Shown piece by piece: positions 307 to 61,037 of a stretch of 64,000 nucleotides of DNA (position 1 is the first letter of the stretch; every line of letters begins with the position of its first letter). The position numbers and the translations under genes are program-made. The stretch comes from Dokdonia sp. Hel_I_53 (GTDB taxonomy: Bacteria > Bacteroidota > Bacteroidia > Flavobacteriales > Flavobacteriaceae): positions 129,001 through 193,000 of the forward strand of contig NZ_VISL01000001.1 in NCBI RefSeq assembly GCF_007827465.1, written 5' to 3'. A model generated the notes under the pieces. The model was not told the origin of the DNA, searched no databases, and saw only the letters and a program-made list of their open reading frames with translations.

Positions 307-3300
307 ATGAATAAAAATTACCTTTTTCTTAACGTCTTGCTCTGCCTGCTCTTAAGCGGCTGTGCAACGTACAATGCAAAATATCTAGATGAAAAATTTC
401 AACCAGAAAATTTTGATAACAGTTCGCTTTCGCGAAAGCGTATAAACACCTCTTTTTATTTAATAGGTGACGCTGGTGGAGATAAAGATGGTGGGAGTAC
501 GTATGCTCTTGATGCTTTTAAAAAAGTTATAGATACCTCAAAAACTGAAAATGATTATGCCATATTTTTAGGAGATAATATATACGAGGCCGGACTTCCT
601 AAGAAAAAAAGCCCAGAGCGTAAAGAAGCAGAAAGAAGACTAAATATACAAATAGCTTCTGTTGAAAATTTTGAAGGAAAGAAATTATTTATTCCAGGAA
701 ATCATGATTGGTACGCAGGAGGTGTAGAGGGAGTAAAACGTCAAGAGAAATATATAAAAGATGCTTTTGATGATAATGAGGCTTTTCAACCAGAGAACGG
801 TTGCCCTATCGAGATGAAAGGTGTAAATGATGAGATAGAGTTAATGATTATTGATACACAATGGTATTTAGAAAATTGGGATAATCATCCTACGATAAAT
901 GATGAGTGTACCATTAGAACAAGGGAGGCATTATTTCTTGAGATCGAGAATGAGTTTAAGAAAAATAATGAAAAAACAATAGTTGTTGTCATGCATCACC
1001 CTATGTATACTAATGGTATTCACGGAGGAAAGTACAGTATTGATAAACACTTATACCCATCACAGAGTAAATTTCCATTACCAATACTTGCATCACTCGT
1101 TACTCAAATACGGTCGCAGGGAGGGGTTTCTATACAGGATAGATATAATAAACAGTATAATGAGTTAATGCAACGTATCTCTGTCTTAGCAAGTGATACT
1201 GATAAGGTAATATTTGCTTCTGGACATGAACATAGCTTACAATATATTGAGCACGATGCCATTAAACAGATCGTAAGTGGTGCGGGCGCAAAGCAATCTG
1301 CAGCAGCCTTAGGTGATGATGGTCTTTTCTCTTATGGAGGTCAAGGGTTTGCAATCTTAGATATATTTGAAGACGAGTCTTCTGCCGTGCGCTTCTACAG
1401 CGCTGTAGACGGAAATCCTAAGCTTTTATTTACTAAAGAGGTATTCCCCCCTAGAAAGAAAGTAAACTTAGATTCCTTACCAAAATTTTATCCACAAACC
1501 GTTAAAGCATCAATATACCAGCAAAATGACACAGATGTTTCTGAAGTTCATAAATCACTTTGGGGAGACCACTATAGAGAAGTCTATGGCACTCCAGTTA
1601 CGGCTCAAGTAGCTACGCTAGACACACTTATGGGTGGGTTTACAGTAGATAGAAAAGGAGGTGGTCATCAAACAAGGTCTTTACGACTAAGAGACAAAGA
1701 TGGTAGAGCATATAATTTAAGAGCTTTACGAAAGAGCGCAGTACAATTTTTACAAAGTGTTGCTTTCAAAGATAAATTTGTACAGGAAGAATTTAAAAAT
1801 ACTTTTACAGAAGATTTAATTTTAGACTTCTATACTTCTGCGCATCCTTATGCATCATTAGCCGTAGCAGAGCTTTCTAATGCGGTAGGTATTTATCATA
1901 CAAATCCTAAGCTAGTATATATCCCTAAGCATAAAGCATTAGGTAAGTACAATGATGAATATGGAGATGAATTATACTTTATAGAAGAGAGACCCGATGA
2001 AGATTTCCTGATGGTAGATTCTTTTGGAAATCCAGACAGTATTGATAGCACAGAAGACTTATTTGAGAATTTACGAGATGATGAAGAGTATCAGGTAGAT
2101 GAAAACGCTTTTTTGAGAGCACGTATTTTTGATATGCTCATAGGAGACTGGGATAGACATACGGACCAATGGAGATGGGCAAGATTTGATGAGAATGGAA
2201 AAAAAATTTATAAACCTATTCCAAGAGATAGAGATCAAGTCTTTTCTAAATTTGACGGAGCAATCTTAGGAACATTAAAAACATTAATACCCGCAGTACA
2301 ACAATTTCAAAATTATGATGGTGATGTAGAAAATGTAAAATGGATTAATGAAGCAGGCATTAAGATGGACCGTACGTTACTAAGGAATGCCACAAAGCAA
2401 GATTGGATACGTGAAGCGCAGTTTATTCAAGATAATCTTTCTGATGAAGAGATAGATATCGCTTTTTCTAAGCTTCCATTGGAAGTGCAAGATCTGGGTG
2501 TTAGTACGATAAAGGAAAGTTTGAGAGAACGTAGATCAAATATTGTTGATATTGCAAAAGACTACTATAATTACATTTCTTCACTAATAATTATTACGGG
2601 AACAGATAAGGATGATCACTTTGAAATTACAAGAGGAAATGGAGAAACAAGAGTACAAATTTCTAGAATCAAAGATGATAAAGTCCAAGAACCTTTTGTA
2701 GATAGGCTCATTAGATCTGATGAAACTAGAGAAATATGGATATATGGATTAGATGATGATGATGTATTTCATGTAAGTGGTGAGGGCAAAAGACCTATAA
2801 AAATGAAAATCATAGGTGGTCAGAACAACGATATTTATGATATAGAAGATGGGCGTAGACTAAAGGTTTTTGAACACAAAACAAAACCTAATACTGTTAA
2901 ACAGAGAGGTGGTGCACATATTAAATTTTCAAACATTTATAATTTCAATACCTATGATCCACTTAAGAAAAAGAGTGTATCTAATAGTATTCTTCCTGCC
3001 ATAGGTTTTAACCCAGACGATGGGTTCTTGGTAGGAATATCAGATGTATTTACCACTTTTGGGTTTAAAAATGACCCTTTTTCTAGTAAGCATACTTTTA
3101 ATGCTACCTATTCATTTGCCACAAAGGCGATTAACTTAAACTATGAAGGTGATTTTGCAAATGCCTTTGGACAGTGGAATCTCGTGGTAGGAGGTAAGTT
3201 TACCAATGAAAGCTTTTCCCGTAACTTCTTTGGTTTTGGTAATGAAACAGAAAATTTTGACGATGATTTAGGTCTAGATTACAATAGAGTACGCAATGGT

Positions 3301-4143: not shown

Positions 4144-4558
4144 GATTAGAGCTAGTTCTTTAGCTCTTTTGAAAGCATACTTTTCTGATTGATAAAAAAC
4201 TTGTTTGCTAAACCAAAAAAATGTACAGCAGTAGGATAGGCTCAGCCCTGGTTATTGTGGGACTTGTGAGATAAAAATTTTTATGATAGAAGTCTTTGCT
4301 GTTGATCATAGATATTAATAGTGGTATTAACTACTTTATTCTTTAGTTTTTCATCAGAGTGTTCATCTTCAAAGTACTTGATTTCTGAGCTGAAGTCTCT
4401 TTAGATTTAGGCATTTAGTGTTTGATTGTATTTGTTCAGTCTAAGGAACCCCGTTTACAGAACCAAAACATAACAAAATAATGCAGAGACAATAATCTTG
4501 CCCTGAATACCGTAAGTTTTTTTGTATTTCTATAAGTCATCTCGCACATTTCTAGGAT

Positions 4559-4573
4559 GCTTTCGCGAAAGCG
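4559..4573. repeat. Palindrome copy, intergenic
   Basis: GCTTTCGCGAAAGCG in the gap between the convergent paralogues. It has no T-run after it, so it is not an ordinary terminator. Confidence 0.95.
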
Positions 4574-4683: not shown

Positions 4684-7600
4684 TTAAAGACCCATGGAGA
4701 ATGCAAAACCAAGTCTACCGCCTTCTGGCCCCGTAAAATAATTAATAGAAGCATTTACGACCGCTGCTGTAGATAACTTTACTCCACCTCCATAGCTATA
4801 ATGCAGCTGTTTACTTTTCTCCTCTGTGATCCAGACGCGACCAGTATCATAACCTAAATACCCTTGCATTCTTAAAGGAAATAGTGCCGTACGTAACGGT
4901 TTAAATTTGTAAGCCAAATCTATAGATCCTGTCAATGACTGTTTTCCAGTAAATCTACTTTGTCTATAAGACCTCAAACCATTATCAGCTCCTATATTTG
5001 CTAACTTATAGAAGGGTATGCTTTCACCAAAACGAATTTGACCCTTTACAGAGGTTTTAAAAATTAAATTTCTAGAAGTATCTATAGCGTTCCAAAAAGT
5101 AATACTAGGATCCAAGATGCCTACAGTTGCTGTACTATTCAATTCGTCAGAAAACTCACCGTTTACAGTAAAGTTCATTCCCCTTGTTGGAAAAAGTACA
5201 TCATCTATACTATGATAGGCATAGGTTGCATCTACAGTAAAGTAATCTGTAGATGTAATCAAATCGGGTTCTCGTAATTTATCACCTAGATCGTAATGTT
5301 CTGCAAGTAATTGAATTGCTGCTGCCGTACCGTACTCCCCATTGTAATAAGTACCTATCCCTCCAGAAAAATGCTGCATGACTATTCTATTTGCATCAAA
5401 AGAATTAGATCTATTTTCTGACTCGTTACCTAATCCAAAGAAATTCTGTGTGTAATTTGCTGTGGTAGCTCTCGCATTTGCTTGAAAGTTCCAATCTTTA
5501 AAAAGATGCCCACGATGCCATGCCATGCGAGCATCGGCTGCTTGCGTTAAAGAGAAATACTGTACACTTATATCAGTTTTTGTAGTAAAAGGGTTTCCTT
5601 CAAATCCTTTTGTTTTTTTACTTACGTTAAGATGCGGAGTTACTCCAGTATCTGGATTGTACGATAGTTCAAGGCCAAATCCAGAACCTCCACCAGGCAT
5701 ACGCTCTGTATCATAAATATGATTTTCATAAATATCATCTATATGATAGCTAGCATTTCCTTTTTTCTTTATTTCATTTTTATACGATTTCTGATCGTAA
5801 ATCGTAACATTATTCCCTCCATTAACGATAAATGTATCCTCATCTAAACCTCCAGTAATTACAACTTTAATCGGACTTGATTTTGTTGCTTGAACTTCAA
5901 ATATATCTTTGTCATCTAATCCATATATCCAAAGATCCTTCGTTTGAGATGGGCTAAAATAACGATCAAATAAAAGCGTTCCTTTCTCACCATCTTTGAT
6001 TCTATGTGCCGTCACATGAACACCTCCTTCTGGAGTGTTTGTAATTACAAAATGATCATCTTTATCAGTTCCTTTTAAGGTCTGAAAAGTCATAAAATGA
6101 TCGTAATAGCGTGTAACAATATCATTGAGGTTACGCTTTCGCGAAAGCAAATCGTCTTGAATACCTTTCCAAATGTCATCTTGAATTTCCTTAGGAGCTT
6201 CACTAAATGCTTTTGATACGACCTCTGGAGTGATCCGATCTTGTATAAATTTTATTTCTTCCTCCCATACGGACCAGTCTGATCGTTGCACAAGGGCTCT
6301 GTCTAGATTAATAGCACTTCTGCTAAATTGTTCTATATAGGGTATGTTGGGACCATATTTTCCAAACTGTCTAGTACCACTCATAAACTTTTGTAAACGT
6401 TCTAAAAAACTTCCATCAAAGTTTGCAAATACTTGATCTCTATCTCTAGGTACCGCAATATAGTTTGTGATCCCATCTTTCTCATCTATTTGAGATTGTG
6501 CCCATCTCCATTGATCTTCGTGTCGGTCCCAATCACCTATGAGCATATCAAATATGCGAGCCCTTATATAAACACGTTCATCAAGCTTGTTTTGCTCATC
6601 TTCACGTATTTCTTCAAAAAGATCAGGCGTACTTTCTACTTCTTTACTATTAGAAAACATATGTGAATTACTAAAGTCACCGTCTGGCTTCTCGACAATC
6701 ATATATAATAAATTACCATGAGTTTCATTGAACTCACCAAGAGCCTTTTGTTTAGGTACGAAATAGAGCTTGGGATGTGTGTGATTAATTTTTATTGATC
6801 CCGCTAGTCTAGGTATTGCAAATGCTCCATAGGGGTGTGCTGCAGTGTAAAAGTCTTCAATTATAGTTGCAGGAACCGTTCCTTCAAAATAATCATCTGC
6901 ATTAAGGTCATTGTATCCAGCAGATTTTAGAAAAGCGATTGGATCTTTTGCAATGGCGCGCATATTGAATTCTTTGTCATCCTTAGTAACAAGTCTAAGA
7001 GATAGTGTTTGATTACCACCACCAGCTCTTTCTACTTTAAGACCACCGTATAAAGTATCTAAAATGGCAACAGGAGCTTCTACGGGAACACCATAGACGT
7101 AGCGATAATGCTTTCCCCAAAATTTTTCATATTTAGCACTTTTAACAACACTTTCTGCAGGATATACAGAAGCAATTTTTGTTTTTGGGAAACTACTGCT
7201 TAGGCTATCTATATTGTACTCTTTTGGCTTTGGGAAGGCTTGTTTATTATAAATTTCTGTAAATTCAGTTCCATTAAAGGTGTAGAAATGCACAGATGAT
7301 GATCCATCTTTATAAATTCTCGTTTCAGAAATACCTGGTTTTGTGGATGTAAAAAGCCCTCTTTTACCAAGACGAGCAGGTTTTACTGAACTACCAGTAC
7401 CAGAGATTACTTGCTTTATACTTTTATGATCTATATATTGTAGAGAGCGCTCGTGTCCTGAAAGTACAATAACATTAGGCGCCTCAAAAGCGGCTAGCTC
7501 TATAATTTCCATAAGCTCATTCATAAGAGGATTATAACGATCCTGTTTTGACAAGCCTCCTTGAGAACGTAAGAATGACCAAAAGGTTCCTGCTACTGGT

Positions 7601-10766: not shown

Positions 10767-10781
10767 CGCTTTCGCGAAAGC
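10767..10781. repeat. Palindrome copy, intergenic
   Basis: CGCTTTCGCGAAAGC in the 65-bp gap after the mscS-like gene, close upstream of its neighbour on the map. Confidence 0.95.
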
Positions 10782-10787
10782 AAAAAT

Positions 10788-13965: not shown

Positions 13966-15702
13966 TTATTTTTCTAGCATACACTTTATTGAATGGTTTG
14001 CCCAGCTTGTAATGCGCTTTCCAAAACATTCTAAAATAGCATCCACTCCTATAACACTTCCTTTAGAGAGCCTTCCTAACACAGCTAGCGGCACAAAACT
14101 TTTATCTTCAGGAACTTCAACATAGCCATAATCATCAGTTCTTATACCCAGATCAGTGTGTTTAGGTTCTATCATTTTATCTTTTAGAAGATTCTGAATA
14201 AGAGTTGTATTTACTTTTACTAATTCTGGAGCGTCTAACACGGCATTAATCATGGTATGTACGTCTAATTCTTGCTCCTCAAGTTTTAGTTTCCAACCCT
14301 CATTATGTAAGTTTATGTCTGGATCCTTAAGGACACTAAGGTCTAAGTATCCTGCTTTTGTGAGTGCAATAAGCTGCTGTATACTTTCTACTGGAGGTCC
14401 ATATGTATATCTTTTTGAGGCCTCATCCAGTGCAATTACCTCTGCGACTACAGCGTCTGGGAGTTCAGGATAAGAAAACTCTGAATATATTGTAGGCTGG
14501 CAATGTCTCCACACTTGACCAATGCAATAGTCTAATGTTATTTGTACCTCTCCTATGGCCATTCCTACCTGATCTTGCATCATTTCGAGAGTGGGTAATT
14601 TATGGGATAGAAGTAAAGGGTGGTCTATTTCTTTGTTACTTATATAATTGATTGCTAGATAATACAGTTCTGATGAGGTATAGTCATGCTCAATAGCCTT
14701 ACTTCCTAAACTGAGAAAGATAGGCACCACTACTTCTGCCATGCTTTCTAAGAGAAAATAGTGATGTTTTGCAGTATGTTCACCACATGCACCTTGGTTT
14801 ACCGCTTTTGCAAAAGCAGACAATGCATCTTCACTAGGAGCAAATAGGTCATCTACAGTTTTATTGAGTGGTTTAGGTACCATAGGCAGTCCATCTAAAG
14901 AAAAAGGAACAAATTTCTCTGGATGTTTTTCTGATGGTTTAAATGCGACCTCTCTGGTGTGTTCATTTAAAATTTCGAAATGCGCTCCTTTCTTTATGGT
15001 GAGTGCTCGTAGAAGATCAATGGTTGCCAGACCGAAACCTCTAAAGCCAACAACCGTAGTTTTATCAATGGTGGCTTGTAATATTTTTTCTACTGGATAA
15101 GGTTCTGTAAAAGTTTGAGGCACTTTATTTTCTTTTGCGTGCTCTTGCCATTTTTTAAGTTGTTCCGAGAGTTCGGTATCTTGATGTCCTACGGTCAGGA
15201 CGATTTCATCTATACCTTTAATAGACTGTTGTTTAGTGATAATCTCAAAGTGTGGTGGTATATACTTTATATCAACCACTTTTTCCTTTATGACTAATAA
15301 CAGTCCAAAGCCTTGCAAAGCTTTTACGATAGTTTCAAACCTAGCATTGAGGTAAGTACCCATTTTTGCTCTAGGAGGAAACGTATCTGGAGTATTATCA
15401 GTAATGGTATCTTTCTCTTTTTCTATCCAATCGCTATATGAGGGAAAACCTGGTATAATAGAAGTTCCAAATTGTATTTCAGGTCGGCCCTTCAAACCTT
15501 GCAAACCTCGCTCCGTAATGTTAAGCCAGTTTGTTGTGACTTGTTCGGGGTTCCAAACCCAGCCGGCGCCTGGATATGCAAAGGGTTCAAAGAGCGTAAC
15601 TTTTACTTCTTTATTACTTTCAGAATTAAATAAAGCGAGATACAAACTTTCTAAAGCATAAAGTCCTCTAGGTCCACCGCCTATAATTGCATAATTTCTC
15701 AT
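13966..15702 (-). CDS. FAD/NAD(P)-binding protein
   Basis: 578 residues. The N-terminus IIGGGPRGLYALESL is a Rossmann dinucleotide-binding motif of the NAD_binding_9 / YdhS type, followed by GAGWVWNP and TNWLNITERG, typical of the family. A second pyridine-nucleotide-like motif is seen at VVGFRGFGLATIDLLRAL. Members are predicted flavoprotein oxidoreductases related to ornithine and lysine monooxygenases, with unknown substrates. It is the first gene of a two-gene unit with the Gre factor. Confidence 0.8.
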   Translation of the reverse strand: MRNYAIIGGGPRGLYALESLYLALFNSESNKEVKVTLFEPFAYPGAGWVWNPEQVTTNWLNITERGLQGLKGRPEIQFGTSIIPGFPSYSDWIEKEKDTITDNTPDTFPPRAKMGTYLNARFETIVKALQGFGLLLVIKEKVVDIKYIPPHFEIITKQQSIKGIDEIVLTVGHQDTELSEQLKKWQEHAKENKVPQTFTEPYPVEKILQATIDKTTVVGFRGFGLATIDLLRALTIKKGAHFEILNEHTREVAFKPSEKHPEKFVPFSLDGLPMVPKPLNKTVDDLFAPSEDALSAFAKAVNQGACGEHTAKHHYFLLESMAEVVVPIFLSLGSKAIEHDYTSSELYYLAINYISNKEIDHPLLLSHKLPTLEMMQDQVGMAIGEVQITLDYCIGQVWRHCQPTIYSEFSYPELPDAVVAEVIALDEASKRYTYGPPVESIQQLIALTKAGYLDLSVLKDPDINLHNEGWKLKLEEQELDVHTMINAVLDAPELVKVNTTLIQNLLKDKMIEPKHTDLGIRTDDYGYVEVPEDKSFVPLAVLGRLSKGSVIGVDAILECFGKRITSWANHSIKCMLEK

Positions 15703-17160: not shown

Positions 17161-17516
17161 AGCAAATACTCGAAGATAAAAAACATTTTATTACAAAATC
17201 TTGCAATTATTTAAGAGAGTTATCTTTTCAAGCGCTAAGAAAGGATACACATGCAGGTTAATAGGATACTTTTCATAAAATACTTTTCCATTAACATTAG
17301 TCAAAAGCCTTTTAAAAATGAAGTATTGCGCTGTTTTCAAGGTTAATGCATGGTTAATGATACAAAGATGTTATGTGTAAACTAGGTTTGCTACTACTTT
17401 TACAAAACCTAATAATCACATAACTTGCTTAGTTGTACTTTACTAATCTGATAAACAATAAATATATGCTTTTTGCTTTCGCGAAAGCGTACAAACATTA
17501 AAGTTAAACATCTGTA
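17161..17516. promoter_or_regulatory. Divergent regulatory region with GGTTAAT repeats
   Basis: 356 bases between the Crp/Fnr gene and the two-component system. GGTTAATG occurs at 17341-17348 and again at 17352-17359, an 11-bp period typical of OmpR/PhoB-type sites. Looser matches are GGTTAATA at 17256-17263 and an inverted CATTAAC at 17289-17295. A palindrome copy sits at 17475. I see no small gene here. Confidence 0.45.
17475..17489. repeat. Palindrome copy, 28 bp upstream of the histidine kinase start
   Basis: GCTTTCGCGAAAGCG between the putative regulatory repeats and the ATG at 17517, so it would be in the mRNA leader or core promoter. Confidence 0.95.
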
Positions 17517-18911: not shown

Positions 18912-19642
18912 TGACAAAGCATCATATTTTATTAGCCGAAGATGATTTTGATTTTGGGAGTATTCTCAAGCAGTATCTCGAGGTACATAACTTTGAAGTT
19001 ACTTGGTGTGAAGATGGGGAAGCGGCTCATAACGCTTTCGCGAAAGCGTACTCAGAAAAAAATCCTTACAGTATCTGTGTGTTAGATGTTATGATGCCAA
19101 AGATGGATGGATTTACCCTAGCCGAAAAATTAATAGAGATACATCCAGAAATCCCATTTGTGTTTCTCACGGCACGCAAAATGAAGGAAGATCGTATACA
19201 GGGATTAAAATTAGGTGCAGATGATTACATCGTAAAGCCTTTTGAGGCAGATATTCTCGTATTACGTTTAAATAATATTTTGAAAAGATCCCAACGGGCA
19301 ATTTTAAATAGACAAAACTCACATAAAAATGTAGAGAATAGTTGTCAAAAAATTGGAAACTATCAATTTGACTTAAAGAATCACATACTAACTATAGGTG
19401 ATAAAAAGCAATCACTCACAGAGCGAGAAGCCCTATTAATTCAATTTTTCTATAAAAATAAAAATCAAATGCTCCGAAGAGAGAACATACTTACAAACAT
19501 CTGGGAAAGCGACGACTTTTTCTCGGGAAGAAGTATGGATGTTTTCATCAGTCGGCTTCGGAAATATTTTAAGGAAGATCCTTCCATCTCAATTGCTAGC
19601 ACGAGAGGGGTGGGGTTAACCTTTAAGATTATGGACGAATAA
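18911..19642 (+). CDS. OmpR/PhoB-family response regulator
   Basis: 243 residues. Receiver domain with acidic pocket Asp11-Asp12, phosphoacceptor Asp59 in VLDVMMPKMDG, Thr in FLTARK and Lys in IVKPF. The C-terminal winged helix (SLTEREALLIQFFYKNKNQMLRRENIL, then SMDVFISRLRKYF) is of the OmpR type. The palindrome at 19033 is translated as AFAKA at 42-46, in a surface stretch before the strand carrying Asp59. It probably controls the secreted protein gene 134 bp downstream; the sequence does not prove this. Confidence 0.95.
   Translation: MTKHHILLAEDDFDFGSILKQYLEVHNFEVTWCEDGEAAHNAFAKAYSEKNPYSICVLDVMMPKMDGFTLAEKLIEIHPEIPFVFLTARKMKEDRIQGLKLGADDYIVKPFEADILVLRLNNILKRSQRAILNRQNSHKNVENSCQKIGNYQFDLKNHILTIGDKKQSLTEREALLIQFFYKNKNQMLRRENILTNIWESDDFFSGRSMDVFISRLRKYFKEDPSISIASTRGVGLTFKIMDE
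19033..19048. repeat. Palindrome copy, inside a gene (AFAKA frame)
   Basis: Perfect 16-mer, read as AFAKA at residues 42-46 of the response regulator. Confidence 0.95.
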
Positions 19643-21145: not shown

Positions 21146-21161
21146 CGCTTTCGCGAAAGCG
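21146..21161. repeat. Palindrome copy, between convergent genes
   Basis: Perfect 16-mer located after the plus-strand terminator and 10 bp from the stop codon of the minus-strand gene. Confidence 0.95.
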
Positions 21162-23072: not shown

Positions 23073-23088
23073 CGCTTTCGCGAAAGCG
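23073..23088. repeat. Palindrome copy, between divergent genes
   Basis: Perfect 16-mer in the 247-bp shared upstream region of the DUF2254 gene and the coiled-coil gene. Confidence 0.95.
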
Positions 23089-31595: not shown

Positions 31596-31611
31596 CACTT
31601 TCGCGAAAGCG
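31596..31611. repeat. Palindrome copy with one arm mismatch, intergenic
   Basis: CACTTTCGCGAAAGCG: the left arm has A where G is expected. It lies 11 bp from the hairpin that terminates dnaN. Confidence 0.85.
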
Positions 31612-37186: not shown

Positions 37187-37195
37187 TTGCTTTAT

Positions 37196-37210
37196 GCTTT
37201 CGCGAAAGCG
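37196..37210. repeat. Palindrome copy, between convergent genes
   Basis: GCTTTCGCGAAAGCG 10 bp after the nitroreductase stop codon and 44 bp from the uvrB stop. Confidence 0.95.
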
Positions 37211-39254: not shown

Positions 39255-39288
39255 GCGCTTTCTTTTGTATAAAAATACGGGTTTTTTA

Positions 39289-39304
39289 CGCTTTCGCGAA
39301 AGCG
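39289..39304. repeat. Extended palindrome copy, intergenic
   Basis: Perfect 16-mer whose symmetry extends outward to 39284-39309 (TTTTA and TAAAA flanks), the longest copy in the window. It lies upstream of uvrB. Confidence 0.97.
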
Positions 39305-39347
39305 TAAAACTCCTAAAGAAATCATAAGAATTAGGGTGTTATTAGGC

Positions 39348-40526: not shown

Positions 40527-40561
40527 AATGATTATGGGAAGCTTGTAGCTGTTTTGATTTT

Positions 40562-40576
40562 GCTTTCGCGGAAGCG
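40562..40576. repeat. Palindrome copy with one mismatch, intergenic
   Basis: GCTTTCGCGGAAGCG differs by one base from the 15-mer; located 36 bp upstream of the aminotransferase start. Confidence 0.8.
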
Positions 40577-44528: not shown

Positions 44529-44543
44529 CGCTTTCGCGAAAGC
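44529..44543. repeat. Palindrome copy between carB stop and its terminator
   Basis: CGCTTTCGCGAAAGC, 17 bp after the carB stop and 10 bp before the terminator stem. Confidence 0.95.
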
Positions 44544-44552
44544 TAAACCCAT

Positions 44553-45494: not shown

Positions 45495-46904
45495 TTAGTC
45501 TTTCAAAGTTAGTGTATCATCATCACCTAACGCTCTTTTTATAATCGCATCAGGAAGTGCTTTTTTTGCTTTGGCTCCCATCTTTTTGAGTCTTTCTACT
45601 CTTGTAATTAAATTTCCGTTGCCTTCTACAAGTTTATTCATGGCGGCTGAGTATCCTTGTTTTGCATCATCCATTTTTTTACCTACCGAAGTTAGATCAG
45701 TCACAAGCCCATGAAATTTATCGTATAAGGCCCCTGCTTGCTTAGCAATTTCTAAAGCATTTTGTTGCTGTTTTTCATTGTTCCACATGCTATCAATAGT
45801 GCGTAGAGTTGCTAGCAGGGTAGAAGGGGTAACAATAACAATATTTTTTTCAAATGCTTGATTGTATAATTGGTTGTCACTATTTATTGCGATGGCAAAT
45901 GCAGGCTCTATAGGAATAAAGAGTAGTACAAAATCTGGACTTTCTATTTGATAAAGGTCGTGGTAGTTTTTATCGCTAAGCTGTTGTACATGACGTTTAA
46001 GCGCGTTAATATGTTCTTTAAGGTGAGCGTCTCTTAAAATTTTATCATCCTCATTTACAAAACGCTCATAAGCTCTTAATGACACTTTGCTATCTACGAT
46101 CATCTTTTTATTATCGGGAAGATGGATCACGACATCTGGCAACACACGATTACCTTCTTCAGTAGTAAAACTCTGTTGCATAAAATACTCTCGATCTTTT
46201 TCAAGACCAGATTTTTCTAGTACGCGTTCTAGTACAAGTTCTCCCCAGTTACCCTGCATCTTACTATCACCTTTTAAAGCTTTGGTGAGGTTGCTGGCCT
46301 CTTTAGTCATTTGCTCATTAAGGGCTGTTAATCCTTTAATTTGCTCTCGAAGGGCAGAGGTTCTATCAATAGCTTCTTTATTTGTTTCTTCTACTCTTTT
46401 TTCAAAATGTTGAATTTTTTCTTGAAGGGGTTTGAGGATGATATCAAGATTTTGCTTGTTTTGTAAAGTAAATTTTGAAGATTTATCTTCCAGTATTTTT
46501 TGAGCTACAATTTCAAAGTCCTTGGTAAATTTTTCTTGAAGTTGCTGCAATTCCATATTTTTTTCTTCCATACGTAATTTTAGATTAGAAAAATCTACAT
46601 TACGTGCGGTCAGTTCATTTTGAAATTGATCTTTTTCTTCCCTCAAGTACGCAAGCTGCTTCTCATTAGCTGCTCTCAAGGCCGTGAGTTGTAGGTCTTT
46701 TTCTGCACGTATTTCTGAGATTTGATTTTCTGCTTTCGCGAAAGCGTCTTTACTCTCGGTCACGTTTAGTTGTGCTTGTGAAAGTCGTTCCTCTATACTA
46801 GAAAGCTCACCTTTCTTTTTAAGATTTGCAATAAAAAAACCTAGAGCGGCACCTATAAGAAGTGCGCCAGTAGCAATAAGTAAAAGGAGAAGAGATTCAT
46901 TCAT
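45495..46904 (-). CDS. rmuC: DNA recombination protein RmuC
   Basis: 469 residues. A membrane helix (about 4-25) is followed by a coiled coil (about 30-150) and the RmuC domain: GNWGELVLERVLEKSGLEKDREYF, LPDVVIHLPDNKKMIVDSKVSLRAYE and IVTPSTLLATLRTIDSMWNNEKQQ. The domain belongs to the PD-(D/E)XK nuclease superfamily (Asp in PDV, DSK). It is associated with limiting DNA rearrangement at inverted repeats. The palindrome at 46732 encodes AFAKA (54-58) in the coiled coil. Confidence 0.93.
   Translation of the reverse strand: MNESLLLLLIATGALLIGAALGFFIANLKKKGELSSIEERLSQAQLNVTESKDAFAKAENQISEIRAEKDLQLTALRAANEKQLAYLREEKDQFQNELTARNVDFSNLKLRMEEKNMELQQLQEKFTKDFEIVAQKILEDKSSKFTLQNKQNLDIILKPLQEKIQHFEKRVEETNKEAIDRTSALREQIKGLTALNEQMTKEASNLTKALKGDSKMQGNWGELVLERVLEKSGLEKDREYFMQQSFTTEEGNRVLPDVVIHLPDNKKMIVDSKVSLRAYERFVNEDDKILRDAHLKEHINALKRHVQQLSDKNYHDLYQIESPDFVLLFIPIEPAFAIAINSDNQLYNQAFEKNIVIVTPSTLLATLRTIDSMWNNEKQQQNALEIAKQAGALYDKFHGLVTDLTSVGKKMDDAKQGYSAAMNKLVEGNGNLITRVERLKKMGAKAKKALPDAIIKRALGDDDTLTLKD
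46732..46746. repeat. Palindrome copy, inside a gene (AFAKA frame)
   Basis: GCTTTCGCGAAAGCG in rmuC, read on the minus strand as DAFAKAE within the coiled coil. Confidence 0.95.
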
Positions 46905-48753: not shown

Positions 48754-49924
48754 CTAAAGGAGTAAAAAATATAGAAGATTTAGGCATTTGTTCTGGATGT
48801 AATATACTTACTAAATCTTCTAATACAAGATCTGGTCTATTAGGTGCAAGCTCGTAATATAAAACTCCGCCCTTAATCCCCTTTTGTTTAGCAAACGTAT
48901 AAATCCTTTTATTTTTAAAAGAATCAAACTCGCCATAAACTTTATTGTCACTTAATAATTTTGAATAGCTAGTATATTGTGCTGGCGCTATCCAAAATGC
49001 TGCATCTTGACCTTCATCTAATACAGCTTCAACACTCATCGTAATACTACCAGTACCAGCGGTTTGTGACCAAAGGTAATTTCCGCCCGCATCATCTATA
49101 ATTTTTGCTTGCCAACTTTCTCCGTTAGGTACATACCAAACGTCTTTATACATAGCACCACTTAAAACAGTAGGTTTGTCAACAATTTTTTTGGCTTTTT
49201 CTTTCGTTGATAAGTAATTTCTTTCAATCCTCTTGAAAATACTATCTGCCTCATGTGCTTTGTTATACAGCGCGCCAAAAAATTTAATCCATTCAGCTTT
49301 TCCAAGTGGATGGGTTTCTACCCAATCACCATTATAAATTACGGGTATTTTAGCATTTTGTAGCGTATTTAAAGTTTTATTTTCACCTTCTACTCCAAAG
49401 GACACCACCACATCTGGCGATAGCTCTATTACAAGTTCTGTGTTGAGAGATTCATTATATCCTACTTCTTTGATTAAATTTTGATCAATACGCTTTCGCG
49501 AAAGCGGACTCGAAATGTAATCTAACCCTGGAAACCCAACTAATGTTTGCGCTACGCCCAACGTTTCTAGTGAAGGAATATGTGTAGTAGAGGTAACAAT
49601 TATAGACTGGATAGGGGTGATTAGAGTTTGATCAATGCGGTTACTATTTTTTAGAGAATCTGCAAGTTGAGTATTATTTGAGTCATTTAGAAGCGCATAT
49701 GAATATACCTTGTCAGAACCTGGGAAAGCCTTGGTAATATCAAGTATGGTATAATCTTTATATGAAGTGATGTTAAAGCCCTCTGCGTAGGTAACTGCAT
49801 TTTCTAATTGTACAGACTCCACTGTTGAAGATGTTTCTTTAATGGGTTCACTCTGCTGCTTACAACTTAATAGTTGTAAATTAATTAAAAGTAGAATAAC
49901 AGGTGCTAGAACCATTTTTTTCAT
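48746..49924 (-). CDS. btuF: Cobalamin-binding lipoprotein of the ABC transporter
   Basis: 392 residues. Lipobox LLSC (Cys21). The periplasmic-binding fold of the TroA/BtuF class is seen: IIVTSTTHIPSLETLGVAQTLVGF, LVIELSPDVVVSFG, IPVIYNGDWVETHPLGKAEWIKFFGALY. It hands B12 from the periplasm to BtuCD. The palindrome at 49491 encodes LSRKR in a loop after residue 140. Its start faces the riboswitch region. Confidence 0.85.
   Translation of the reverse strand: MKKMVLAPVILLLINLQLLSCKQQSEPIKETSSTVESVQLENAVTYAEGFNITSYKDYTILDITKAFPGSDKVYSYALLNDSNNTQLADSLKNSNRIDQTLITPIQSIIVTSTTHIPSLETLGVAQTLVGFPGLDYISSPLSRKRIDQNLIKEVGYNESLNTELVIELSPDVVVSFGVEGENKTLNTLQNAKIPVIYNGDWVETHPLGKAEWIKFFGALYNKAHEADSIFKRIERNYLSTKEKAKKIVDKPTVLSGAMYKDVWYVPNGESWQAKIIDDAGGNYLWSQTAGTGSITMSVEAVLDEGQDAAFWIAPAQYTSYSKLLSDNKVYGEFDSFKNKRIYTFAKQKGIKGGVLYYELAPNRPDLVLEDLVSILHPEQMPKSSIFFTPLDE
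49491..49506. repeat. Palindrome copy, inside a gene (LSRKR frame)
   Basis: Perfect 16-mer in btuF, translated as SPLSRKRID. Confidence 0.95.
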
Positions 49925-50266: not shown

Positions 50267-52138
50267 ATGAAAGATATATTTACAATTTTAATCTTTGTGC
50301 TTTGTATTACAAGTGCAACTTCCCAAATAGATACTCTGCAGTACCTGCCAGAGGTGATTCTCAGTGACATAAAGTTACAGAAGCATAGTACAGGAGTTTC
50401 TATACACACGATTACAGATAGTATCATAAAAGGATCTAAAACTTCTCTAACAGAAATACTTAGTGCAAATAGTTTAATTTATTTTAAAGATAATGGGCCT
50501 GGTGGTGTTTCCTCACCATCATTTAGAGGCACAAGTGCGCAACAGACTGCGGTTGTTTGGAACGGTATTAATGTAAATAGTCAATTAACAGGACAGACGG
50601 ATTTCAATACGATTTCTTCTAGAAATTATAGTAACATTACTGTTAGGTCAGGTGGTGGAAGTATTATATATGGATCTGGCGCAGTAGGAGGAAGTGTTCA
50701 TTTAGAAAATAAAATATCTTTTAATAAAGCAAATACAACCAGTATAATAGCAGGGTACGGGAGTTTCAATACAAAGGTTGCGGCAGCAAAAACAATAGTT
50801 GCTAAGGAAAAAATATATGTAGATCTTGGAGTGGATTATCAGTCTAGTGACAATGATTTCAAATATTTAGAATCTGATAGGCGTAATGAAAATGGCTCTT
50901 TTGAAAATTTAGATGCTAGTTTAAATTTTGGCTATACGTTATCCTCCTCCTTAGTCTCTAAAAATGTCGTAAAATTCCATCATAATACGTACGTAGGGGA
51001 CCGTAATTTTTCTGGTACTCTTACCGCACCTAGTGATGATGCTTATGAAGATAGGACGTCAAAGACACTAGCTATTTGGGATCAAAAACGATCTGATTAT
51101 AAAGGATCACTTAAAATTGGGCATATTTTTGAGCAATTTAAATACTTTGCAAACAATGATAATAAGGATCAATATAGTTTAGGTAAATCAAGTAGGTATG
51201 TAGCACACTACGATGGGGCTATACGTATAGATAATTCTAAAAATCTAACACTTTCTGGAGAGTTTAATGCTATTTCTGGAGATGGTAGTTCTATCGAAAA
51301 ATCTTCAAGAAAAAGTACTTCTGCCATTGCCTTGTGGAAGCATAGGCTAAATGACCAGCTTAATTACGAGTTACAAATGAGGCAAGAATTTATAGACAAC
51401 TACAAGAGTCCTTTTTTGTTAAGTCTAGGGGTAGAATACGCTTTCGCGAAAGCAAATAAAAACCCGCGCTATATCCTCTCCTTGAACGCTTCACGGAACT
51501 ATAGAATTCCTACATTTAATGATCTCTATTGGGAGGGTGCGGGTTCCATGGGTAATATTAATCTGCTACCAGAAACCAGTTTGCAAGTCGATGTAGGACA
51601 GAAATTAAACTTTAAAGAAGTACTACTTGATCTTAGAGGTTATTATATACAAACTAAAGATCTTATAAGATGGCAACCCAATACGAGTGGGATTTGGATT
51701 CCAGTTAATATTGCCGATGCAAAACATTATGGTATTGAATTTTCAGGAACCTATCATATACAATTAGGTAAACATTACTTTGAAACAGATGTGAGGTATG
51801 GTCATACGATCGCAAAAGATATATCTACAAATAAACAACTTATTTATGTGCCTAAACATAAGGCTACTTTTTCTATTACGCATAGATATAATTGGATACA
51901 GTTTTTTGCTCAGAATATAGTTCAAAGTAATGTATTTACTACTTCTGACCATACTGCTACTGTGAAGGGATACTATTTGATACATACTGGTTTAACAGCA
52001 AGTATATTAAATAAAAAAAATAATAAGATGTCTATTACGGCTAGATTAAATAATGCACTCAATACAAATTATGAAACAGTCGCTTTTAGACCTAATCCAG
52101 GTCAAAATTTATTAATACAAACCACTTATACATTTTAA
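50267..52138 (+). CDS. btuB: TonB-dependent cobalamin receptor
   Basis: 623 residues. Signal peptide (about 1-19, ending TSATSQ). The plug domain has LTEILSANSLIYFKDNGPGG, SFRGTSAQQTAVVWNGINVNS and the VRSGGGSIIYGSGAVGGSV block, then a 22-strand-type barrel ending in an aromatic residue (TTYTF). It imports B12 across the outer membrane using TonB energy. The assignment rests on the riboswitch, the BtuG-like gene and the BtuFCD operon. The palindrome at 51439 encodes AFAKA in an outer or turn segment (VEYAFAKANKN). Confidence 0.92.
   Translation: MKDIFTILIFVLCITSATSQIDTLQYLPEVILSDIKLQKHSTGVSIHTITDSIIKGSKTSLTEILSANSLIYFKDNGPGGVSSPSFRGTSAQQTAVVWNGINVNSQLTGQTDFNTISSRNYSNITVRSGGGSIIYGSGAVGGSVHLENKISFNKANTTSIIAGYGSFNTKVAAAKTIVAKEKIYVDLGVDYQSSDNDFKYLESDRRNENGSFENLDASLNFGYTLSSSLVSKNVVKFHHNTYVGDRNFSGTLTAPSDDAYEDRTSKTLAIWDQKRSDYKGSLKIGHIFEQFKYFANNDNKDQYSLGKSSRYVAHYDGAIRIDNSKNLTLSGEFNAISGDGSSIEKSSRKSTSAIALWKHRLNDQLNYELQMRQEFIDNYKSPFLLSLGVEYAFAKANKNPRYILSLNASRNYRIPTFNDLYWEGAGSMGNINLLPETSLQVDVGQKLNFKEVLLDLRGYYIQTKDLIRWQPNTSGIWIPVNIADAKHYGIEFSGTYHIQLGKHYFETDVRYGHTIAKDISTNKQLIYVPKHKATFSITHRYNWIQFFAQNIVQSNVFTTSDHTATVKGYYLIHTGLTASILNKKNNKMSITARLNNALNTNYETVAFRPNPGQNLLIQTTYTF
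51439..51453. repeat. Palindrome copy, inside a gene (AFAKA frame)
   Basis: CGCTTTCGCGAAAGC in btuB. Confidence 0.95.
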
Positions 52139-55435: not shown

Positions 55436-56705
55436 ATAAAAGATATTTAGAACGTATTTTTTTAAAGTGCTCTATATCTTCTGTCCAACTACTTTTTATT
55501 TCCTCAAATGGAATTCCAGCTTCAATTGCTTTTTGTAAATCTTCTGTTCCAGCATGTAGTGTAAAACTCGCTGTTTTAAAAAACGAATCTTTATCATTAC
55601 TTGCCTTATATGCTTCTATAAGCCACTGTAGATTTACAGAGGATAGATCATCTACTTCTCGTAAGTCCTTTCCGTTACATAATAATCCATTATACTTTGG
55701 AGACTTTGCTCCAAAGTTAGGTTGCGGTGTATATGCATATGTAAATTGAGACTTAGAAAAATCTGGTGCTCCAAAAATTTGAAATTGCATTTCAGTTCCT
55801 CTTCCTGCATTAACGGTCGTACCTTCAAAAAAGCCTAAACTAGGGTAGAGGTTAATACTTTTGCTATTAGGTAAATTTGGAGAAGGGCGCACAGGTAGCT
55901 TGTATGTAGTCGTATATTTCCAATTTCTTAATGGAATAACTTTAAGATCTGTCTTAACATTGTTCTTAAGCCATTTTTCACCATTAATCATTTTTGCATA
56001 CTCGCCTATTGTCATTCCATAAACAAGTGGTATTTCATGCATACCCAAGAAGCTACTATGTTCTTTTCTTAAGGTAGGACCATCAATATAATGCGCATTA
56101 GGATTAGGTCTATCTAAAACAATTAAAGGGATGTCCTTTTCAGCCGCAGCCTCCATCACATAAGTGAGTGTCGAGATATACGTGTAAAATCGTACACCTA
56201 CATCCTGTATATCAAAAAGTAGAATGTCTAACCCTTCTAATTGCTCCTGTGAAGGTTTTTTATTATTACCATAAATAGATATAATGTTTAATCCAGTTTT
56301 TGGATCCTTACCATCTTTTACATCTTCTCCAGCATCTACATCACCCCGGAAACCGTGCTCAGGAGAAAATACTTTTGATACATTTATACCGCTAGTTAAA
56401 AGTGAGTCTACTAAGTGTATACTTTCTTCTTCAGAATGTGGATACGTTCTAAATATAAGTCCACTTTTATTAGTCACAACTCCTACATTCTTTCCACGTA
56501 ATAGTGGAAAATATTGTTCTGTTTGATTTGCCCCTACTAAGATTTTTAAGTTTTGTTGTTGAGTAAACACCTTAGCTTTTGTAGAGTCTTTTTCTTTATG
56601 AATATTCGCTTTCGCGAAAGCGTTATTCCCGCCTCCCTTATTTGCGCAAGAAATAAGAAGTAAGAGCGTTAAAAAAACGGTATTTTTGATAAAAAGTAAA
56701 CGCAT
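55428..56705 (-). CDS. namZ: Exo-beta-N-acetylmuramidase (DUF1343)
   Basis: 425 residues. Lipobox LISC (Cys20). The DUF1343 pattern is strong: LRGKNVGVVTNKSGL, SPEHGFRGDVDAGE, LLFDIQDVGVRFYTYISTL, IVLDRPNPN and LYPSLGFFEGTTVNAGRGTE. NamZ enzymes release N-acetylmuramic acid from the non-reducing ends of peptidoglycan fragments, for wall recycling. The palindrome at 56607 encodes AFAKA in the linker behind the lipid anchor. Its ATG lies directly against the start codon of the divergent permease gene. Confidence 0.93.
   Translation of the reverse strand: MRLLFIKNTVFLTLLLLISCANKGGGNNAFAKANIHKEKDSTKAKVFTQQQNLKILVGANQTEQYFPLLRGKNVGVVTNKSGLIFRTYPHSEEESIHLVDSLLTSGINVSKVFSPEHGFRGDVDAGEDVKDGKDPKTGLNIISIYGNNKKPSQEQLEGLDILLFDIQDVGVRFYTYISTLTYVMEAAAEKDIPLIVLDRPNPNAHYIDGPTLRKEHSSFLGMHEIPLVYGMTIGEYAKMINGEKWLKNNVKTDLKVIPLRNWKYTTTYKLPVRPSPNLPNSKSINLYPSLGFFEGTTVNAGRGTEMQFQIFGAPDFSKSQFTYAYTPQPNFGAKSPKYNGLLCNGKDLREVDDLSSVNLQWLIEAYKASNDKDSFFKTASFTLHAGTEDLQKAIEAGIPFEEIKSSWTEDIEHFKKIRSKYLLYE
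56607..56622. repeat. Palindrome copy, inside a gene (AFAKA frame)
   Basis: Perfect 16-mer in the linker region of namZ, about 85 bp from the divergent start codons. Confidence 0.95.
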
Positions 56706-57946: not shown

Positions 57947-57962
57947 CGCTTTCGCGAAAGCG
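57947..57962. repeat. Palindrome copy, 9 bp after the permease stop
   Basis: Perfect 16-mer with TA-rich flanks between the permease and SDR genes. Confidence 0.95.
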
Positions 57963-58868: not shown

Positions 58869-58876
58869 TACATTTG
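58869..58876 (+). promoter_or_regulatory. Probable -7 box of the aldolase promoter
   Basis: TACATTTG, matching TAnnTTTG, 21 bp before the ATG at 58898. An alternative GTG start at 58874 would fall inside this box. Confidence 0.5.
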
Positions 58877-58897
58877 TGTATAACCAAAAACGAATCG

Positions 58898-59554: not shown

Positions 59555-59570
59555 CTGCGACGCTAGTTTA

Positions 59571-59614
59571 AACAAGAAAGCCTTCAATTACTAATTGAAG
59601 GCTTTCTTGTTTTT
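59571..59614. terminator. Bidirectional terminator
   Basis: A 19-bp perfect stem centred on CTA, with flanking T-run on the plus strand; it separates the aldolase gene from the convergent lipoprotein gene. Confidence 0.9.
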
Positions 59615-59633
59615 GCAAGGTAATTTATGAAAG

Positions 59634-61037
59634 CTATAACTTTAAATAAGCTATTAAGTCATTTTCAAATTTTGCATTTTGAAGATTTGCGTGACTATTT
59701 AAAATAGTTCCATTTTTATCAAGGACAATAGTTTTATTTATATCATTGATTACTAGTTGCTTTCTAGCTTGTTTAGGATTTAGAAATCGAAATTCTTTTT
59801 GAGAAGAATAGCCGTTTTTTTGTAAATGCTTAAGCCATGTGTCTTGTTCTGTATTTATATTTATTCCCACAAAATTAAACTCAGGATACTTCTTTTGTAG
59901 TTCTGCAGCCTTTTGGTGAGAGCTTTTCATATGAGGTAAATTTAAATAAGACCAAAAGTATAATACAGAAGGGCTTTCAAAAGCTTTACTCATAATATTT
60001 GCTTTCCCCTCAGTATTCAAGACAGCAAGTTTTGGAATTTTATTCCCAGCTTGCATACTTTTATTATTTGCATAGGTATCATTAAGAGCCTCGATAGTTT
60101 CTTGAGAGGAGGAGACTTCTTTTATTTCATCAAAAAGAGCATCAACTTTCTTTAGGTCATTACTGTTTGCGATAAAAATGCGTGCAACTTGTTTGAGCAT
60201 GCGTTCTTTCTGCCTGCTATTAGTGATAAGACTATCTATCATTTTCACTTTGTGATGATTATGAAGATATGAAGTTCTGTCAAAATTATGTTGATCTCCA
60301 TATTCCATATATGCGAGGTTATTCATATAACTATTCACATACCTTTGAAAACTAAAAAGCTCTTCAATATTTCTATTATTTAGATCTACGCTTTCGCGAA
60401 AATTGTAAAAATTAGGGTTAAGATTTTTTATGAATTCATATTTATCTTCTCCATACCTAGCAAAAGGATACCACTCTTTACGCTGATAATTATCTAACAC
60501 GCTTGCTGCAGAAGCTATTTCAGAAAAATTGTCAGAAAAATTTTCTTTTGCAAGAAATTCATTGAGCCCCCGTGTATGAACTATCGCCATGGAGTCAAGC
60601 ATCTTTTCAAAATTTTCAGGGTTTTTCTGATATCGTTGTTTTAAGAAATTATTTTCTTCTTCCCAGTGTAAGAATTTATTTATTAGAAAATTATTTTTTG
60701 CAGCACCATAGCCAGAAAATGTAAGGGATTCATCAAACTCTTTAGTATTTACACGTAGTAGTAAACTATCTCCTTCTTCTATATGTAGTAATTGAAACTC
60801 TCCGTGTACAAAACGGTAAAGTCCTTCTTCTAGATTTGAAAAAGTATACGAAAATTTATTTCTTCTATCAAGAGGAATACTATCAGTAACTTTTTCATTT
60901 TTATAAAGCAATATATAGCTCTGGACAGGATTGATAATCTCTCCACTTAAAAAGGTTCCGTTGGCTTTTGTAGATTCACTAGAATCACAACTGTTACAGA
61001 GGGTAAATATGATTATAAGGGCAGCAACGTATTTCAT
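59634..61037 (-). CDS. Thioredoxin-fold lipoprotein lacking the CxxC motif
   Basis: 467 residues. Lipobox LCNSC (Cys17). The N-terminal 120 residues look like the DUF4369/ resA-like beta domain of Bacteroidota TlpA proteins; the C-terminal 130 residues are thioredoxin-like (SPSVLYFWSYLNLPHMKSSH, FNFVGININTEQDTW, IVLDKNGTILN). At the place of CxxC the sequence is SYLNLPHM, so disulfide exchange is impossible. The protein may bind other proteins. The imperfect palindrome at 60389 encodes FRES. Confidence 0.8.
   Translation of the reverse strand: MKYVAALIIIFTLCNSCDSSESTKANGTFLSGEIINPVQSYILLYKNEKVTDSIPLDRRNKFSYTFSNLEEGLYRFVHGEFQLLHIEEGDSLLLRVNTKEFDESLTFSGYGAAKNNFLINKFLHWEEENNFLKQRYQKNPENFEKMLDSMAIVHTRGLNEFLAKENFSDNFSEIASAASVLDNYQRKEWYPFARYGEDKYEFIKNLNPNFYNFRESVDLNNRNIEELFSFQRYVNSYMNNLAYMEYGDQHNFDRTSYLHNHHKVKMIDSLITNSRQKERMLKQVARIFIANSNDLKKVDALFDEIKEVSSSQETIEALNDTYANNKSMQAGNKIPKLAVLNTEGKANIMSKAFESPSVLYFWSYLNLPHMKSSHQKAAELQKKYPEFNFVGININTEQDTWLKHLQKNGYSSQKEFRFLNPKQARKQLVINDINKTIVLDKNGTILNSHANLQNAKFENDLIAYLKL
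60389..60402. repeat. Half-degraded palindrome copy, inside a gene (FRES frame)
   Basis: CGCTTTCGCGAAAA: left arm and centre intact, right arm lost. Read as NFRESV on the minus strand. Confidence 0.7.

What the first reader, a model, noticed from the sequence alone, without database searches (positions are those of the whole stretch)
425..60402. A highly iterated palindrome, CGCTTTCGCGAAAGCG, spread over the whole window
Seen directly: 19 copies with an intact 14-bp core (GCTTTCGCGAAAGC), 10 of them full 16-mers, and four degraded ones (8994, 31596, 40562, 60389). With base frequencies of about 0.18 for G or C and 0.32 for A or T, fewer than 0.0001 copies are expected in 64 kb. Gaps between genes are about 9 percent of the window but hold 9 of 19 intact copies, roughly a nine-fold higher density. 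The copies have no T-run and lie upstream, downstream, between and inside genes, so they are not terminators or operators of one regulon. Comparable known cases are HIP1 of cyanobacteria and uptake signals of Neisseria and Haemophilus, both different in sequence. A site for a nucleoid, segregation, uptake or methylation protein is inferred.
Basis: partly seen in the sequence, partly recalled or inferred. Interest (0 to 1): 0.88.

Follow-up and report, generated by a model that had tools for sequence, protein, structure and literature searches.

The report
Genome-wide evenly spaced bacterial palindrome
A marine bacterium has the same exact DNA palindrome written hundreds of times across its chromosome, evenly spaced and kept intact by evolution, which looks like landing sites for an unknown protein that helps organise or exchange its DNA.

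Summary
GCTTTCGCGAAAGC occurs 19 times here and 700 times in the 2.93-Mb genome; the reversed control occurs 0 times. The genus is Dokdonia (inferred). The 17 other same-genus genomes searched hold 369-905 copies. Of 397 family genomes, six in three genera have hundreds, 74 have 1-19 and 317 none. Where low-copy islands were fetched (7 of those 74 genomes), they belong to one island family shared with this genome, probably mobile.

The element is larger than reported: a consensus 20-bp palindrome (TACGCTTTCGCGAAAGCGTA) in a symmetric 50-bp footprint whose C-poor, G/T-rich arms end sharply 25 bp from the dyad. Copies arise and decay by point mutation, are mostly exact, avoid each other within about 1 kb and are 9-fold denser between genes than inside them.

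No C5 (PF00145) or N4/N6 (PF01555) methyltransferase, extra ParB or pilus-type ATPase is common to 12 palindrome genomes tested. Best reading: sites of an unidentified dimeric DNA-binding protein, most likely architectural; DNA uptake is the main rival. The recogniser was not found.

The parts
425..440 (.). full 16-mer palindrome, inside gene 307-4029 (LSRK frame)
4558..4573 (.). 14-mer core intact, 1 outer mismatch, intergenic
6134..6149 (.). 14-mer core intact, inside gene 4684-8367 (LSRK frame)
10767..10782 (.). 14-mer core intact, intergenic
14803..14818 (.). degenerate copy, 3 mismatches, core still symmetric
17474..17489 (.). 14-mer core intact, just upstream of a histidine-kinase-like gene
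19033..19048 (.). full 16-mer, in gene 18911-19642, encodes AFAKA
21146..21161 (.). full 16-mer, intergenic
23073..23088 (.). full 16-mer, intergenic
26588..26603 (.). full 16-mer, in gene 25632-26651, encodes RFRES
28582..28597 (.). full 16-mer, in gene 28196-29371, encodes AFAKA
31596..31611 (.). 1-mismatch copy (CACTTTCGCGAAAGCG)
33251..33266 (.). 14-mer core intact, inside the fused gldF-gldG gene, encodes SFRES
37195..37210 (.). 14-mer core intact, downstream of uvrB
39289..39304 (.). full 16-mer upstream of uvrB; same place in 11 of 12 same-genus relatives printed
39272..39321 (.). example of the full 50-bp symmetric element (14-mer core +/- 18 bp) at the uvrB copy
   Evidence: footprint edge
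40561..40576 (.). 2-mismatch copy
44529..44544 (.). 14-mer core intact, just downstream of carB
46731..46746 (.). 14-mer core intact, in gene 45495-46904, encodes AFAKA
49491..49506 (.). full 16-mer, in gene 48746-49924 (LSRK frame)
51439..51454 (.). 14-mer core intact, in TonB-receptor-like gene 50267-52138, encodes AFAKA
56607..56622 (.). full 16-mer, in gene 55428-56705, encodes AFAKA
57947..57962 (.). full 16-mer, intergenic
60389..60404 (.). degraded copy, 3 mismatches on one side

Best explanation
Each copy is a high-affinity site for one lineage-specific, homodimeric DNA-binding protein that reads a 20-bp palindrome and touches about 15 further bases on each side (50 bp in all). The protein occupies several hundred sites along the chromosome, about one per 4.2 kb, and works as a chromosome-architecture (nucleoid) factor. 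A site is useful where none lies within about 1 kb, and redundant or harmful when another is close, in a promoter, or in a constrained codon. Sites arise by point mutation in permissive places and are then held exact by purifying selection. Shown: the symmetric element, exactness, spacing, placement, retention and point-mutational turnover. Inferred: that a dedicated dimer reads it, that it acts inside the cell, and that the role is architectural.
For: 700 copies against 0 of the reversed control. 208 exact, 32 one-mismatch, 35 two-mismatch and 40 three-mismatch copies in 857.5 kb; 60 shuffled palindromes average 0, 0.08, 1.2 and 18.75. Two-mismatch copies are not symmetric (1 of 35, 0.9 expected), so sequence rather than hairpin pairing is kept. 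The footprint edge at -18/-19 is seen in own sites (C 500/6600 inside against 939/6600 outside), other Dokdonia, the two other genera and island copies in other hosts; the two arms vary independently, as two half-sites would. Gaps under 500 bp: 2 of 167 against 27 expected; short gaps are also rare in two relatives. Between two species (80-89% identical in four blocks) 15 of 19 comparable sites are intact in both; three differ by one substitution, one by an indel-bearing stretch. About 0.15 would survive unconstrained at 87-88% identity (my arithmetic). Divergent gaps, which hold two promoters, carry fewer sites than convergent ones: 15 in 18.8 kb against 19 in 9.7 kb, p 0.01.
Against: The protein is not identified. 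The origin-terminus trend is not significant once three presumed island stretches are dropped and three origin-near ones added (rho -0.25, p 0.10, n 43), although an axis pattern is typical of known segregation and occlusion factors. Even spacing and exactness are also predicted by biased uptake with molecular drive, and one paper argues that uptake sequences are less even than compaction would need (PMC1939737, passage), a standard not applied here. Patchy distribution (three changes on a ParB tree, two forced) is odd for a core chromosome function. No known architectural factor that I recall has so many long exact sites.
Confidence: 0.42

Rival explanations
1. DNA-uptake signal spread by molecular drive: an unknown surface receptor prefers DNA with the palindrome, so site-bearing alleles overwrite others by transformation; no benefit of the single site is needed.
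For: Even spacing, permissive places, exactness and presence on islands shared between genera fit. Papers say DUS spacing matches conversion fragments and that even USS distribution follows from drive (PMC2397512, PMC7811141, passages seen). Riemerella columbina, described there as Flavobacteriaceae, prefers its own DNA in transformation, with no motif established (PMC7965970 section 16). ComEC is present in 26 of 26 genomes tested, and this genome itself has a T2SSE/PilB-type ATPase.
Against: Known uptake sequences are not palindromic (recalled). The T2SSE/PilB-type ATPase passes its cut-off in only 3 of 12 palindrome genomes and in 2 of 14 others. ComEC is equally present in palindrome-free sisters, so nothing found in the core machinery explains the patchy distribution.
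Confidence: 0.27
2. Recombination or repair mark: a two-way Chi-like stop signal. A break-processing nuclease arriving from either side meets the palindrome, and RecA loads on the G/T-rich 5' arm of the surviving 3'-ended strand.
For: The arms are strand-specific: G/T up and C down on the 5' side of each half, which base-step mechanics alone does not explain (the argument is mine). Density of one per 4.2 kb is like that of E. coli Chi (recalled).
Against: Known Chi sites are short and polar (recalled); 14-20 symmetric bases are far more than needed. No nuclease difference between palindrome and sister genera was tested.
Confidence: 0.1
3. HIP1-like iterated palindrome kept in relation to a DNA methyltransferase that recognises its centre (TCGCGA or CGCG).
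For: Same style: palindrome, intra- and intergenic, spread by substitution, lineage-wide. In cyanobacteria every genome with such a sequence is said to have a fitting methyltransferase (PMC4390886, passages seen).
Against: This genome has no PF00145 and no PF01555 match; PF00145 is missing from 7 of 12 palindrome genomes and PF01555 passes its cut-off in 2 of 12. HIP1 is 8 bp; no such long arms are described in the passages seen.
Confidence: 0.05
4. A small mobile repeat (REP, MITE or palindromic element) that copies itself by insertion.
For: High copy number, palindromic, intergenic copies mostly near gene ends.
Against: 107 of 208 copies are inside genes; the two enzymes examined, phosphoglycerate mutase and enoyl-CoA hydratase, align through AFAKA without a gap. 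Most differences in ungapped sites between species are single substitutions. No conserved flank beyond 25 bp and no family of spaced half-sites.
Confidence: 0.03
5. Transcription terminators or operators of a large regulon.
For: Intergenic copies lie near stop codons: median 18 bp from the upstream stop against 71 bp to the next start in 65 tandem gaps. Convergent gaps are denser than divergent ones.
Against: 107 of 208 copies are inside genes. The 3' side is A/C-rich on average, without a T-run. Hairpin pairing is not what is conserved.
Confidence: 0.04

Closest known systems
HIP1 (GCGATCGC) of cyanobacteria
   Same: Highly iterated palindrome in genes and between them, gained by substitution, typical of a lineage
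   Different: Other sequence and phylum; 20-bp consensus palindrome with 50-bp footprint instead of 8 bp; about 240 per Mb against the 500-2500 per Mb cited for HIP-type sequences; no PF00145 or PF01555 methyltransferase in this genome
DNA uptake sequences of Neisseriaceae (DUS) and Pasteurellaceae (USS)
   Same: Hundreds of copies, even spacing, permissive places, also inside genes
   Different: Palindromic and longer; high copy number in three flavobacterial genera with palindrome-free sisters; T2SSE/PilB-type ATPase in only 3 of 12 genomes; uptake not shown
Noc-binding sites, SlmA-binding sites and parS
   Same: Palindromic sites for homodimeric DNA-binding proteins, spread over the chromosome (site lengths recalled)
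   Different: Some 700 sites rather than dozens; no gap at the inferred terminus; no shared extra ParB; ParB without fixed differences between palindrome and other genera in 28 sequences
Chi sites
   Same: Density near one per 4-5 kb (recalled); G/T-rich strand next to the site
   Different: Chi is short and polar; this is a long palindrome
REP/BIME elements
   Same: Many palindromic copies between genes
   Different: No insertion seen in the cases examined, half in genes, no conserved longer unit

Membership tests
HIP (highly iterated palindrome, cyanobacterial sense) | Extreme over-representation of one palindrome over the whole genome | tested here: met
   700 against 0 control
HIP (highly iterated palindrome, cyanobacterial sense) | Gained by nucleotide substitution, not insertion | tested here: met
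   (two proteins and three species examined)
HIP (highly iterated palindrome, cyanobacterial sense) | Presence of a methyltransferase that recognises the centre | tested here: inconclusive
   not met for PF00145 and PF01555, no match in this genome; other methyltransferase families not tested
DUS/USS uptake sequences | High copy number with even spacing in permissive places | tested here: met
DUS/USS uptake sequences | Type IV pilus-type machine common to the genomes with the sites | tested here: not met
   PF00437 over cut-off in 3 of 12 palindrome genomes, this one included; ComEC in 26 of 26
DUS/USS uptake sequences | Site raises DNA uptake | not testable with these tools
   needs a transformation assay
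ParB/Noc/SlmA-type chromosome sites | Second ParB-type protein in genomes with the sites | tested here: not met
   one ParB in 11 of 12 palindrome genomes, two in one; 28 genomes searched; no fixed ParB differences. SlmA-type TetR proteins not tested
ParB/Noc/SlmA-type chromosome sites | Uneven chromosome distribution, such as a gap at the terminus | tested here: not met
   14 sites in four 20-kb stretches at 0.435-0.68 Mb near the inferred terminus; rho -0.36, p 0.017 at first, -0.25, p 0.10 in the revised sample
ParB/Noc/SlmA-type chromosome sites | Palindromic site bound by a homodimer | tested here: inconclusive
   palindromic with independent half-site arms; no protein known
REP/MITE | Copies inserted as a unit | tested here: not met
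Chi | Protects DNA from the break-processing nuclease | not testable with these tools
   needs an assay

The most novel reading that the evidence does not exclude
A chromosome-wide address code of a new kind: a horizontally acquired or repeatedly lost protein with a 50-bp symmetric site has, by selection or drive on single point mutations, rewritten the chromosomes of at least two separate flavobacterial lineages with hundreds of exact, spaced copies. It placed one in the same loop of the same transporter gene twice, in different reading frames.
Probability: 0.35. Interest if true: 0.88.

Novelty: new variant of a known kind. Interest (0 to 1): 0.74.

Why it matters
HIP1 still has no agreed function, and uptake sequences are known from two families. 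Here is an independent, longer and sharper case in Bacteroidota, with palindrome-free sister genera as natural controls. The recogniser can be sought by gene content and by affinity pull-down, and the uptake, architecture and recombination readings make different predictions. It would also serve as a watermark for tracing DNA that has lived in these hosts.

Tried and rejected
Noc-like ParB paralogue: rejected. C5 and N4/N6 methyltransferase as common recogniser: rejected for PF00145 and PF01555 only. Type IV pilus-type ATPase common to palindrome genomes: rejected. ComEC as discriminator: uninformative, present in all 26. Origin-terminus gradient: first seen (rho -0.36, p 0.017), then not significant after three stretches taken to be island DNA (L172, L015 by homology, L153 by assumption) were dropped and three origin-near stretches added (rho -0.25, p 0.10). 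Spaced half-sites as a MITE: none as a family. A different palindrome in six palindrome-free loci (three relatives, three other Bacteroidetes contigs): none but AT-rich ones at 12 bases seen in 20-22 kb each. A close pair of sites at 588 kb as the recogniser's own operator: nothing telling nearby. Named phages and plasmids with the element: no convincing match to the one 38-base query. Literature: in an open-access library; no paper describing this palindrome was recognised in the listings, and none held the exact 14-mer.
Full report
OBSERVATION. The window holds 19 exact copies of GCTTTCGCGAAAGC and none in 100 dinucleotide shuffles; 10 are CGCTTTCGCGAAAGCG. The window lies at 129001-193000 of a single 2.93-Mb contig that holds 700 copies against 0 of the reversed control.

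WHO HAS IT. The 17 other same-genus genomes searched hold 369-905 copies. The genus is Dokdonia by inference: a locus titled Dokdonia sp. lies in a genome of the same size and count (2.6 Mb, 385) as a same-genus genome. Of 397 family genomes (a drawn sample), six have hundreds: two of this genus, three of three in genus g11 (578, 664, 609) and one of one in g210 (408). 74 have 1-19 and 317 have none. None of the 23 genomes of other families in the order has a copy.

LOW COUNTS AS A WATERMARK. I looked at nine of the 74 low-copy genomes. In ten island stretches fetched from seven of them, every stretch matches others of the set and this genome's own 342-380 kb stretches (L172, L015) in pieces of about 66-97% nucleotide identity; most copies, not all, lie inside matched pieces. 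That the island is a mobile element is my inference from its spread. A pair 933 bp apart recurs in four genera and also in g96; in L194 it lies in one 405-codon frame that I read as TolC-like. In the g96 genomes G120 and G330 the 16 and 19 exact copies are clustered on one and three contigs. Mismatched copies outside those clusters number about 14 in G120 (control 5) and at most about 8 in G330 (control 15; its list was cut); G024 has 13 against 16. So there is little sign of decayed relics outside islands, with G120 somewhat above its control; G095 (17 exact) was not looked at further.

ANATOMY. In 464 kb the consensus extends to TACGCTTTCGCGAAAGCGTA; the outer positions are C 79%, A 56% and T 76%. 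In 857.5 kb there are 208 exact, 32 one-mismatch, 35 two-mismatch and 40 three-mismatch copies; 60 shuffled palindromes average 0, 0.08, 1.2 and 18.75. Beyond the palindrome, the 5' arm of each half is poor in C and rich in G and T from -4 to -18 and is near background from -19, that is 25 bp from the dyad. C counts inside (-18 to -4) against outside (-34 to -20): 500 of 6600 against 939 of 6600 in 220 own sites; 189 of 3000 against 468 of 3000 in 100 sites of other Dokdonia stretches; 48 of 630 against 108 of 630 in 21 sites of g11 and g210; 63 of 810 against 143 of 810 in 27 island sites in other hosts. The relatives' sites are partly orthologous, so p-values overstate independence. The arms of one site vary independently and are not complementary to each other beyond the outer palindrome. 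Only 1 of 35 two-mismatch copies is symmetric, as chance gives, so exact sequence and not hairpin pairing is kept.

PLACEMENT. With a simple home-made gene caller (753 genes, 91% coding), 107 copies are in genes and 101 between them, intergenic bases being 9.4%. Convergent gaps carry 19 in 9.7 kb, tandem 65 in 44.4 kb, divergent 15 in 18.8 kb (p 0.026 over the three). In tandem gaps the median distance is 18 bp from the upstream stop and 71 bp to the next start. In genes the three frames hold 59, 28 and 20 copies, read as AFAKA, xLSRK and RFRES or SFRES; several AFAKA look by eye like signal-peptide ends. In the two enzymes examined, homologues of known structure align through AFAKA without a gap, so there the site was made by substitution.

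SPACING. For the first 100 listed copies 2 of 99 gaps are under 1.1 kb; 21.7 are expected and 8 is the lowest in 20,000 simulations. In the sample 2 of 167 gaps are under 500 bp (27.0 expected) and 11 under 1 kb (45.5 expected), with intergenic preference built into the null. 97 intergenic gaps have one site, one has two, 614 none. Among the first listed places the same holds in G016 (2 of 66 under 1 kb, 16.4 expected) and G010 (0 of 32, 4.8 expected); nine gaps of G234 are too few.

TURNOVER. The uvrB-upstream site is at the same place in this genome and 11 of 12 same-genus relatives printed, lies further upstream in the twelfth (G011), and is absent in three palindrome-free relatives. Elsewhere sites do move: beside carB two relatives have it at another place, beyond the terminator-like hairpin, and three show none in the printed stretch. 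Among close pairs, 16 of 18 comparable sites are intact in both G008 and G005 (88-95% identical by block) and six of six in G003 and G016 (94%). Between G008 and G007 (80-89%) 15 of 19 are intact in both; three differ by one substitution, one by an indel-bearing stretch. Six gapped cases, several at block ends, and one masked one were set aside. G234 shares three of its seven sites in two loci with Dokdonia at the same aligned position and frame, in comEC, an ABC-transporter permease and the gene after parB. In that permease g11 has the palindrome in the same variable loop but in another frame (RFRES instead of AFAKA), and in a second gene at another place. The simplest reading is that these g11 copies were gained separately.

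HISTORY. On a ParB tree g11 groups with g96, whose only copies are clustered (100/97), and G234 with palindrome-free G024 (92/89); the label needs three changes, two forced by well-supported branches. One gene only, so this is a rough guide.

SEARCH FOR THE READER OF THE SITE. ParB: each of 28 genomes has one; extra copies occur in one palindrome genome and two others, and no ParB position separates the groups. C5 methyltransferase PF00145 is absent from 7 of 12 palindrome genomes, this one included. N4/N6 methyltransferase PF01555 passes its cut-off in 2 of 12, not here. T2SSE ATPase PF00437 passes in 3 of 12 palindrome genomes, this one included, and 2 of 14 others. ComEC is in 26 of 26.

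CHROMOSOME AXIS. A one-mismatch parS-like site at 2.005 Mb lies beside a gene that I read as mnmG; with two mismatches three places match, as many as in the reversed control, so the count alone is no evidence. The GC skew changes sign near there. I take it as the origin. Density falls from 2.86 to 1.81 per 10 kb away from it (rho -0.36, p 0.017). With three presumed island stretches dropped and three origin-near ones added, rho is -0.25, p 0.10. There is no gap at the inferred terminus: 14 sites in four 20-kb stretches.

MECHANISM. An exact, symmetric, 50-bp element with independent arms, kept by selection or drive and spaced out, is best read as the site of a dedicated dimeric protein (inference; I would put this broad claim at about 0.85). 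Between architecture and uptake the data do not decide. I lean to architecture because the site is palindromic, promoter-bearing gaps are avoided as a bound protein would demand, and the pilus-type ATPase is missing from 9 of 12 palindrome genomes. Against it stand the patchy distribution and the lack of a firm chromosome-scale pattern. The strand-specific G/T arms also allow a recombination signal readable from both sides.

COMPARISON. It behaves like HIP1 or an uptake sequence in its population genetics. Whether it meets the methyltransferase criterion of HIPs is open beyond the two families tested (PMC4390886, passages); it does not meet the pilus criterion of uptake sequences as a shared trait. 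Literature seen: passages of PMC4390886, PMC7965970 (also its section 16), PMC7811141, PMC2397512, PMC1939737, PMC6657595 and PMC12306157; other papers only as search listings.

Noticed in passing
L172, L015 (own genome 342-380 kb), perhaps to L153 (402-422 kb): A large island with efflux-type genes (CusA/TolC-like by my reading) is shared in pieces of about 66-97% nucleotide identity with islands in seven low-copy genomes of other genera; the palindromes suggest it has lived long in palindrome hosts.
   Followed up: partly
window 32913-35357: GldF and GldG are fused into one 814-residue reading frame; a pattern-limited genome scan returned four loci matching nearly its full length.
   Followed up: partly
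L180 (G015), just downstream of uvrB: A palindrome is split at its centre by about 45 bp that contains CTGAGCGGAGTCGAAG, a sequence I recall as a common flavobacterial repeat.
   Followed up: no
L247 around 11049 and L248 around 9804: The comEC gene itself carries a conserved palindrome (RFRES) in four Dokdonia genomes and in G234.
   Followed up: partly
L053, L067, L084, L107, L139, L145, L152 and further pieces of the same viral contigs: Some viral contigs of unknown host hold two to four copies, so phages of palindrome hosts may carry the element.
   Followed up: partly
own genome 1560105-1561238: A strong T2SSE/PilB-type ATPase match exists here and in only two others of the 12 palindrome genomes searched.
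   Followed up: no
G120: C3 118777, 135759, 179279; C4 55863; C6 62115: Five copies of one two-mismatch form (GCTTTCGCGAAAAT) lie outside the island cluster in G120; perhaps a different repeat.
   Followed up: no
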